This document shows, piece by piece, positions 5,297 through 5,447 of a DNA stretch of 6,379 bases. The translations under genes were made by a program, and so were the position numbers. The stretch is from Holophagaceae bacterium (GTDB lineage: Bacteria > Acidobacteriota > Holophagae > Holophagales > Holophagaceae), in NCBI GenBank assembly GCA_025353305.1, contig JANXQX010000162.1:1-6379 (forward strand), written 5' to 3'. Below the pieces are notes generated by a model. It saw nothing but the letters and a program-made list of their open reading frames with translations. It did no database searches and was not told the DNA's origin. Each line of letters opens with the position of its first letter. The stretch's first letter is position 1.

Positions 5297-5333
5297 CGGG
5301 TCAGCGAAAGTGGAAAAGCTAGACCGGCCACGC
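5290..5333 (-). promoter_or_regulatory. Antiterminator pairing of the thr attenuator
   Basis: On the minus strand, GCGTGGCCGG (5333-5324, the last codons of the leader peptide) can pair with CCGGCCCCGC (5299-5290): 9 of 10 positions match, with one U/C mismatch. The second segment contains the whole 5' arm of the terminator (5296-5290), so the two structures exclude each other. A ribosome stalled in the Thr codons at 5360-5340 would leave 5333-5324 free and favour readthrough. A ribosome that reaches the stop codon at 5321-5319 would cover that segment and let the terminator form. The pairing is seen in the sequence; the mechanism is inferred from known thr and his attenuators. Confidence 0.8.
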
Positions 5334-5447
5334 CCTGAAGGTCGTAGTCGTGATTGTCGTCGCGGAATTGATCTGAACCGAGCCGAAGCTGATGGACGTG
5401 AAGCATGCCTTCACGATCAGCGGGGAGGGGTTGAGGGCAATGCGCAT
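5319..5447 (-). CDS. thrL: thr operon leader peptide
   Basis: A 42-aa leader peptide starting MRIALNPSPL and ending FRAWPV. Residues 30-36 (bases 5360-5340) read T-T-I-T-T-T-T, coded acg aca atc acg act acg acc. This parallels the TTITTTITITT run of the E. coli thrL peptide. The peptide itself needs no function: it is a ribosome-speed sensor for charged tRNA-Thr, with a smaller possible input from tRNA-Ile (one Ile codon in the run). The start is ATG 5447, with GGGAAAGG 7 bases upstream. It is roughly twice as long as the 21-aa E. coli peptide, with about 29 unrelated residues before the control codons. It ends 62 bases before thrA and is followed by the terminator. Confidence 0.9.
   Translation of the reverse strand: MRIALNPSPLIVKACFTSISFGSVQINSATTITTTTFRAWPV

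What the first reader, a model, noticed from the sequence alone, without database searches (positions are those of the whole stretch)
5319..5447. Overlooked 42-codon threonine leader peptide
A minus-strand reading frame with a good ribosome site carries Thr-Thr-Ile-Thr-Thr-Thr-Thr just upstream of thrA. Such leaders are well known in enterobacteria. This one is about twice the usual length, with no sequence likeness to E. coli ThrL outside the control run. It has one Ile among seven control codons, which suggests mainly threonine rather than joint Thr/Ile sensing.
Basis: partly seen in the sequence, partly recalled or inferred. Interest (0 to 1): 0.72.

Follow-up and report, generated by a model that had tools for sequence, protein, structure and literature searches.

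The report
Threonine leader-peptide attenuator in Holophagae
A short threonine-rich peptide gene in front of the threonine operon of an acidobacterium very probably works as a switch that turns the operon on when threonine runs short; the kind of switch is known, but here its messenger seems to begin right at the peptide's first letter.

Summary
The minus-strand ORF 5447-5319 (42 codons, TTITTTT at codons 30-36) lies before thrABC of a Holophagaceae bacterium (Acidobacteriota), not an enterobacterium. An intrinsic terminator (5297-5275) and the thrA start (5256) follow. Relatives show a classical ribosome-mediated transcription attenuator: leader plus terminator precede thrA in 54 of 58 genomes of the class with a ThrA match. 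The leader's last codons can pair with the terminator's 5' arm in 36 of 36 non-redundant leaders, and this pairing co-evolves.

The leader mRNA is therefore probably leaderless, and the 'ribosome site' overlaps the promoter. A Trp leader before trpE has 36-38 nt in 22 of 34 loci.

Control codons are mainly Thr, but Ile or Met occurs in 53 of 55 leaders. About 40 codons is normal here. Nothing was tested by experiment. Verdict: new member of a known kind, in a class where my searches found no description of it; leaderless leader peptides are known elsewhere (S. meliloti, Streptomyces).

The parts
5477..5482 (-). -35-like hexamer TTGACC; its first T is exactly 35 nt before the A of the leader ATG
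   Evidence: TTGAC at 35 or 36 nt in 52 of 60 upstream regions, base shuffles 9 of 12000
   Evidence: sequence; matrix of 28 promoters; the sigma-70 scan found no promoter
5319..5447 (-). leader peptide ORF, 42 codons plus TAG; predicted transcription start at its A (5447)
5340..5360 (-). control codons Thr-Thr-Ile-Thr-Thr-Thr-Thr (codons 30-36)
   Evidence: Thr enriched in the control region of 36 non-redundant leaders, OR 6.3
5322..5333 (-). antiterminator 5' arm GCGTGGCCGGTC, the last four leader codons directly before the TAG
5290..5302 (-). antiterminator 3' arm GACCCGGCCCCGC, overlapping the terminator 5' arm
5275..5297 (-). intrinsic terminator: stem GGCCCCGC/GCGGGGCT, loop of 7, then TTTTGTTT
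2821..5256 (-). thrA, bifunctional aspartokinase / homoserine dehydrogenase I; AGGA at 5265-5262 is its likely SD
   Evidence: NF006959 E 2e-292; SD energy -4.3
1865..2824 (-). thrB, homoserine kinase
   Evidence: TIGR00191 above cut-off
570..1871 (-). thrC, threonine synthase (start approximate)
   Evidence: TIGR00260 above cut-off

Best explanation
This is a ribosome-mediated transcription attenuator of the thrABC operon. RNA polymerase starts at or within about a nucleotide of the A of the leader AUG (inferred from promoter spacing), and a ribosome follows on this leaderless message. With enough threonyl-tRNA the ribosome runs through the Thr codons to the UAG. There it covers the last leader codons, so the segment GACCCGGCCCCGC is free to form the terminator hairpin and transcription stops before thrA. 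When threonyl-tRNA is short, the ribosome stalls in the Thr run about 9 codons upstream. The exposed GCGUGGCCGGUC then pairs with GACCCGGCCCCGC, the terminator cannot form, and thrABC is transcribed. Shown here by computation: the sequence elements, their conservation, the mutually exclusive pairing and its co-evolution. Inferred: transcription, translation, stalling, and the direction of the response.
For: All 5 Holophagaceae MAGs fetched by ThrA (L001-L005) have the leader, a Thr-containing run, the ending ARPV-TAG and the terminator. Leader plus terminator occur in 54 of 58 genomes of the class with a ThrA match, and in the window. A promoter-free Thr criterion alone found 27 of the 30 class loci L080-L084 and L086-L110. 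The stop-to-terminator distance is 19-36 nt, median 23. In 36 of 36 non-redundant leaders the tail exposed by a stall pairs with the terminator arm (7-14 bp), and a ribosome at the stop leaves the terminator free (footprint assumed). Cognate tail/arm pairs are stronger than swapped ones: -20.9 against -17.4 kcal/mol, 0 of 100000 permutations, largest p 0.0006 over 30 random picks. Thr makes up 30.6% of the control region against 6.5% of the N-terminal part. TTGAC lies 35-36 nt before ATG in 52 of 60; three gammaproteobacterial controls have 61, 69 and 73.
Against: No transcript, start-site or translation data. The window's -10 hexamer is poor and the promoter scan found none. The tail's pairing beats dinucleotide shuffles at 0.05 in 38 of 55 leaders, not all, and in 3 of 9 groups a foreign arm pairs better than the cognate one. 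Without a ribosome the predicted fold has at least 6 terminator pairs in only 26 of 36, so no conserved protector hairpin is shown. Nine of 55 terminators have only four T in the eight bases after the stem. Four genomes with a 40-42% identical ThrA (L135-L138) show no leader. L092 has a single Thr and L130 two in the last 20 codons.
Confidence: 0.92

Rival explanations
1. The attenuator is real, but the message has an ordinary 5' UTR and the leader is started from the SD-like GGGAAAGG; the promoter lies further upstream.
For: GGGAAAGG pairs with the anti-SD at -5.6 kcal/mol. A second TTGAC lies 51 nt before the ATG in the window. The -10 hexamer at the leaderless position is weak. Eighteen of 36 leader starts reach -4 kcal/mol.
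Against: The SD-like stretch is not kept across the class: 18 of 36 leader starts against 32 of 36 thrA starts reach -4 kcal/mol, and L092, L097, L106, L120 and L132 have none (thrA starts were picked automatically and some are doubtful). The TTGAC-ATG spacing varies least of the spacings (sd 0.39), although those rows were selected on it. The position before ATG is C in 21 of 28, as at many transcription starts.
Confidence: 0.2
2. The leader senses several products of the homoserine branch (Thr, Ile, Met), not threonine alone.
For: Ile, Met and Asn are each about two-fold enriched in the control region (OR 1.9-2.1, p below 0.01), and leaders such as VMMITMATTT (L082), SIMINGT (L092) and TIMMIGT (L106) are mixed. 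Ile or Met occurs in the last 20 codons of 53 of 55.
Against: Ile and Met codons are one C-to-T change from Thr codons, so drift under a weak constraint gives the same picture. Related rows were counted as independent. In the window six of seven run codons are Thr.
Confidence: 0.3
3. The ORF is a small protein with a function of its own, not only a sensor.
For: N-terminal dN/dS is below 1 (0.29-0.68, three pairs) and the start MR is conserved in the close clade.
Against: The N-terminal parts differ strongly between clades, and the conserved end is explained by RNA pairing and the Thr run.
Confidence: 0.05
4. Chance ORF next to an ordinary terminator of an upstream transcript.
For: None beyond the general caution that short ORFs are common.
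Against: 0 of 5000 shuffles; conservation in 54 of 58 genomes.
Confidence: 0.02

Closest known systems
Enterobacterial thr operon attenuator (thrL; Rfam RF00506 Thr_leader)
   Same: Thr-rich leader peptide with some Ile, intrinsic terminator between leader and thrA, control of thrABC, alternative pairing of the leader region (E. coli details recalled).
   Different: No RF00506 match in the window (up to E 10) or in the class loci L001, L003, L004, L089 and L106 (up to E 1), while three gammaproteobacterial loci match, though below the gathering score. Leader about 40 codons, no shared sequence seen outside the run, predicted leaderless: TTGAC-ATG 35-36 nt instead of 61-73.
Sinorhizobium meliloti trpLE(G) attenuator (PMC7298713, passages read)
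   Same: The leader RNA begins with the ATG of the leader ORF; terminator-based attenuation.
   Different: Trp, 14-residue peptide, alphaproteobacterium; the 5' end is reported there, only predicted here.
Leaderless leader peptides of Streptomyces lividans, including a thrS leader called thrL (PMC8079986, passages read)
   Same: Several leader ORFs reported as transcribed leaderless from RNA-seq.
   Different: That thrL has 18 residues with two Thr, lies before thrS, and its termination is called unclear.
Thr leaders before thrA in Myxococcaceae (L008-L011, L013, L015, L034; found here; the L015 record is titled Comamonas)
   Same: Thr run, GGTC-TAG ending, GC-rich terminator, TTGAC 37-38 nt before a GTG or ATG start.
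   Different: Up to 10 Thr in a row, other N-terminal sequence, separate ThrA clade. Four further loci (L016, L017, L029, L030) have a broken Thr run and no TTGAC at such a distance.

Membership tests
Ribosome-mediated (leader-peptide) transcription attenuator | Short ORF with a run of codons for the operon's product, upstream of the biosynthetic genes | tested here: met
Ribosome-mediated (leader-peptide) transcription attenuator | Intrinsic terminator between leader and first gene | tested here: met
   in the window; found for 55 of 55 leaders by a permissive finder, 9 of them with only four T in the tail
Ribosome-mediated (leader-peptide) transcription attenuator | Antiterminator that excludes the terminator and whose 5' arm is covered by a ribosome at the stop codon | tested here: met
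   36 of 36 by folding, co-evolution of arms; prediction only
Ribosome-mediated (leader-peptide) transcription attenuator | Protector (1:2) hairpin that favours termination when there is no translation | tested here: inconclusive
   terminator of at least 6 pairs in the ribosome-free fold in 26 of 36
Ribosome-mediated (leader-peptide) transcription attenuator | Read-through rises when the amino acid is limiting | not testable with these tools
   needs an experiment
Rfam RF00506 Thr_leader | Match to the covariance model | tested here: not met
   no match up to E 10 in the window and up to E 1 in L001, L003, L004, L089, L106; controls L020, L026, L067 match at 33-49 bits, below the gathering score of 55
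Leaderless leader-peptide mRNA (as S. meliloti trpL) | Transcription starts at the A of the leader AUG | tested here: inconclusive
   predicted from TTGAC-ATG spacing of 35-36 nt in 52 of 60 and the matrix; start site not mapped

The most novel reading that the evidence does not exclude
In Holophagae, leader-peptide attenuators are built as leaderless mRNAs as a rule: polymerase starts on the AUG of the leader peptide in the threonine operon (35-36 nt from TTGAC) and within about two nucleotides of it before trpE (36-38 nt). The ribosome would then load on the bare 5' end and follow the polymerase from the first codon. A further possibility, not counted in the probability, is that the thr leader reads out the joint supply of Thr, Ile and Met.
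Probability: 0.6. Interest if true: 0.55.

Novelty: new member of a known kind. Interest (0 to 1): 0.42.

Why it matters
[quoted passage not shown] This gives two attenuators of one acidobacterial class, thr and trp, a likely signal and a mechanism. If the leaderless start is confirmed, it offers a natural system to ask how a ribosome that starts on a bare 5' end keeps pace with polymerase well enough for attenuation. It also shows thr leaders that Rfam's Thr_leader model did not find in the loci tested here.

Tried and rejected
Chance ORF: rejected by shuffles and conservation. Membership in RF00506: not met. The weak Rfam match RF02401 in the window (17.7 bits, gathering 42) covers the terminator hairpin and the thrA start and is taken as chance. 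Protein homologues of the leader: none found, but the search needs shared 5-residue words. Pfam and NCBIfam: no leader model matched; one leader (L080) had a chance-level DUF2922 match (E 0.03); the Aeromonas control also failed, so this is no evidence. RNAalifold on a MAFFT alignment of leader tails gave no structure; the support for the antiterminator therefore rests on per-sequence folding and the partner-swap test. Leaders before leuA: none in 7 loci. Before ilvB (7 loci) ORFs passed the filter in L151, L152 and L153; only L152 is Leu/Val-rich with a terminator-like hairpin behind it, and it was not followed. Before hisG: one of 8. Joint Thr/Ile/Met sensing: kept as a rival, not proven.

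Literature: 10 searches; nothing listed described thr attenuation in Acidobacteriota. They were narrow (searches returned no paper) and the listings were capped. PMC4833913 does report frequent short leader genes in Acidobacteria as a statistic; the passages I saw name no operon of theirs. Comparative attenuation papers of the Gelfand and Lyubetsky groups in subscription journals, which I only recall, were not readable. Of PMC2965389, PMC7298713, PMC11857589, PMC8079986, PMC4833913 and PMC3160421 I saw passages only; of other papers only search listings. The E. coli ThrL length and the general attenuation model are recalled.

Caveats on counts. The leader calls required an ATG 34-36 nt after TTG[AC][CG] (except L082, whose contig begins inside the promoter), so they are not independent of the spacing. 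One search used TTGAC only and ATG-started ORFs of 30-55 codons with the stop at -150 to -50; other distances also occur there from further ATGs (26 nt in 19 rows, 23 nt in 15, 47 nt in 10, and others). Its shuffles keep single-base composition only and ignore relatedness. The 8 misses are L082 (short contig), L085 (the Myxococcus locus, the same as L008: 38 nt to a GTG), L132 and L134 (TTGCG at 35/36) and L135-L138 (no leader seen). Two of the 58 ThrA matches are partial (G028, G077). 36 of 55 leaders were kept as non-redundant (over 90% identity dropped). The ribosome footprint of 14 nt is an assumption. In one search only spacings of 33-39 nt were accepted. That the class of G001 is Holophagae is inferred from the record title of L001 and the taxonomy.

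Full report
What the window is. The minus strand carries thrA (5256-2821), thrB (2824-1865) and thrC (about 1871-570), each above the NCBIfam cut-off for its name. A divergent GDPD-family gene lies at 5531-6190 on the plus strand. The nearest ThrA proteins belong to Holophagaceae MAGs (88% L004, 86% L001), so this is an acidobacterium of the Holophagae, not an enterobacterium. No whole genome is held for the window.

The observation. The ORF 5447-5319 is as described. It is the only place in six frames of the window with six Thr in seven residues, and 0 of 5000 dinucleotide shuffles of the upstream region reproduce it. Behind it come a GC-rich hairpin with a T-rich tail (5297-5275) and, 18 nt after the hairpin, the thrA ATG.

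Conservation in the close clade. ThrA fetched 79 loci from genome contigs. All five Holophagaceae MAGs (L001-L005) have a leader of 40-44 codons starting MR, a run with Thr (mixed with Met and Ile in L002), the ending ARPV-TAG and the terminator; the stop is 62-66 nt before thrA. The first 29 residues drift: amino-acid identity is 62-69% among the three closest, and dN/dS of codons 2-29 is 0.68 (0.225/0.333), 0.29 (0.203/0.690) and 0.58 (0.322/0.559). For 199 codons of thrA (window against L004) it is 0.13.

Conservation in the class. A search of 93 genomes of the same class found a ThrA match at E up to 1e-140 in 58, two of them partial. I read the upstream region of all 58. Leader and terminator are called in 54 and in the window, and not in L135-L138, whose ThrA is 40-42% identical. 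Without any promoter criterion, a Thr-rich ORF (at least 4 Thr in 8 residues) was found in 27 of the 30 class loci L080-L084 and L086-L110; the misses are L092, L106 and L109. Leader lengths are 23-48 codons, median 40; stop to terminator is 19-36 nt, median 23; stems are 7-12 bp. Nine of the 55 terminators have only four T in the eight bases after the stem.

The switch. Folding the RNA from the end of the leader to the terminator's 5' arm, without the 3' arm, pairs the end of the leader with that arm in 36 of 36 non-redundant leaders. In the window the helix is GCG-u-GGCCGG-UC against GA-c-CCGGCC-c-CGC. With the ribosome placed at a Thr in the middle of the run (footprint of 14 nt assumed), 7-14 such pairs form in 36 of 36; with the ribosome at the stop, the terminator forms in 36 of 36. 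To ask whether the two arms evolve together, I swapped arms between nine sequence groups. Cognate pairs average -20.9 kcal/mol and swapped pairs -17.4; 0 of 100000 permutations were as strong, and over 30 random picks of one row per group the largest p was 0.0006. In three of nine groups a foreign arm pairs better than the cognate one (ranks 2, 3 and 5). Against dinucleotide shuffles of the tail, 38 of 55 are at or below 0.05. Without any ribosome the terminator (6 pairs or more) is in the predicted fold in 26 of 36, so a conserved protector hairpin is not shown.

The start of the message. TTGAC lies 35 nt (43 rows) or 36 nt (9 rows) before an ATG of a leader-sized ORF in 52 of 60 upstream regions (window, 58 class genomes, one Myxococcus); base shuffles give 9 of 12000. 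For a sigma-70 promoter this puts the start on or next to the A of the ATG. In 28 promoters that differ by at least 20%, the ATG is preceded by C in 21, and A is commonest at -12 (19) and -11 (16); these rows had been chosen by the spacing. Three gammaproteobacterial thr leaders, read the same way, have 61, 69 and 73 nt. Seven Myxococcaceae-type loci have 37-38 nt to an ATG or GTG, and four others (Corallococcus L016, L017, L029, and L030) show no TTGAC at 20-100 nt. An SD-like stretch of -4 kcal/mol or better is present at 18 of 36 leader starts against 32 of 36 automatically chosen thrA starts. In the window it is GGGAAAGG, which overlaps the weak -10. I therefore think the message is leaderless, but the window's own -10 is poor (2 of 6) and the consensus scan found no promoter. 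Leaderless leader peptides are known: the S. meliloti trp leader RNA begins with the ATG of trpL (PMC7298713, passages), and Streptomyces lividans has several (PMC8079986, passages). A survey put predicted leaderless genes at 13.3% on average in three acidobacterial genomes (PMC3160421, passage).

What is sensed. In the control region of 36 leaders Thr is 30.6% against 6.5% in the N-terminal part (OR 6.3). Ile, Met and Asn are each about two-fold enriched (OR 1.9-2.1, p below 0.01; rows are related, so p is optimistic). In the last 20 codons, Ile or Met occurs in 53 of 55 leaders and three or more Thr in 53 of 55; six leaders have exactly three Thr or fewer. Thr is the main signal. Joint sensing of the homoserine-branch products is possible, but Ile and Met codons are also one transition away from Thr codons. 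Of the leader's seven Thr codons four are ACG and one each ACA, ACT and ACC; thrABC has ACC 39, ACG 16, ACT 5, ACA 4.

A second example in the same genomes. I examined 34 of the 68 class genomes with a trpE match. In 22 of these 34 loci a Trp-rich leader ORF (mostly WWWR) has TTGAC 36-38 nt before its ATG (37 in 18, 36 in 3, 38 in 1). Eight of the other 12 show ORFs with neighbouring Trp codons but not that spacing, and L177-L179 and L182 show none. In 5 of 6 folded trp leaders the segment after the Trp codons pairs with the terminator arm; the exception is L165, whose best fold is local. One of eight hisG loci (L176) has an ORF ending in IHHHAHSPHPG before a terminator-like hairpin.

Origin. 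In a ThrA tree of 30 rows, the window's clade, the other Holophagae and the Myxococcaceae are separate groups within one larger branch (support 85/94, open). All three carry a Thr leader, while L006, L012 and L014 within that branch show none. One old origin with losses, and transfer, cannot be told apart.

Known or new. It works like the thr attenuator of enterobacteria, but it is not a member of Rfam RF00506 as modelled. Leader-peptide attenuation is a known kind, and leaderless leaders are known elsewhere. The class is new for it as far as my ten literature searches reach. I call it a new member of a known kind.

Noticed in passing
L161-L166, L186, L188-L202 (upstream of trpE): Trp leader ORFs (WWWR type) with TTGAC 36-38 nt before ATG in 22 of 34 trpE loci examined: a second near-leaderless attenuator of the class.
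   Followed up: partly
L176, ORF ending 77 nt before the hisG match: ORF ending IHHHAHSPHPG followed by a terminator-like hairpin: possible His leader in one of eight genomes examined.
   Followed up: no
L152, ORF ending 86 nt before the ilvB match: Leu/Val-rich ORF (MSGLSLIIPSGVGLQAGLLSVPVVGLLLLGSAGPE) before a terminator-like hairpin: possible branched-chain leader.
   Followed up: no
L008-L011, L013, L015, L034 (upstream of thrA); L016, L017, L029, L030: Poly-Thr leaders with up to ten consecutive Thr, GGTC-TAG ending and terminator in Myxococcus-type loci; in Corallococcus and L030 the run is broken (T-x-T-x-T).
   Followed up: partly
L040, L047, L048, L050 (Thermoflexus, upstream of aspartokinase): Leader-like ORFs rich in Met and Thr (MMTTTGMMTTG type) before a CCCCCCGG terminator-like hairpin: possible Met/Thr attenuator in Chloroflexota.
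   Followed up: no
L092 and L106 (class genomes G064, G065): Leaders with one and three Thr but Ile and Met (SIMINGT, TIMMIGT), same promoter spacing and a terminator: the control codons may have changed meaning.
   Followed up: partly
window 1-480: Overlapping short minus-strand frames beyond thrC look like a remnant of an insertion element; no family was tested with a correct translation.
   Followed up: no
window 6200-6250: Plus-strand text with CACCAAGACACAAAGGGCACAAAGAG resembles a short intergenic repeat; not searched.
   Followed up: no
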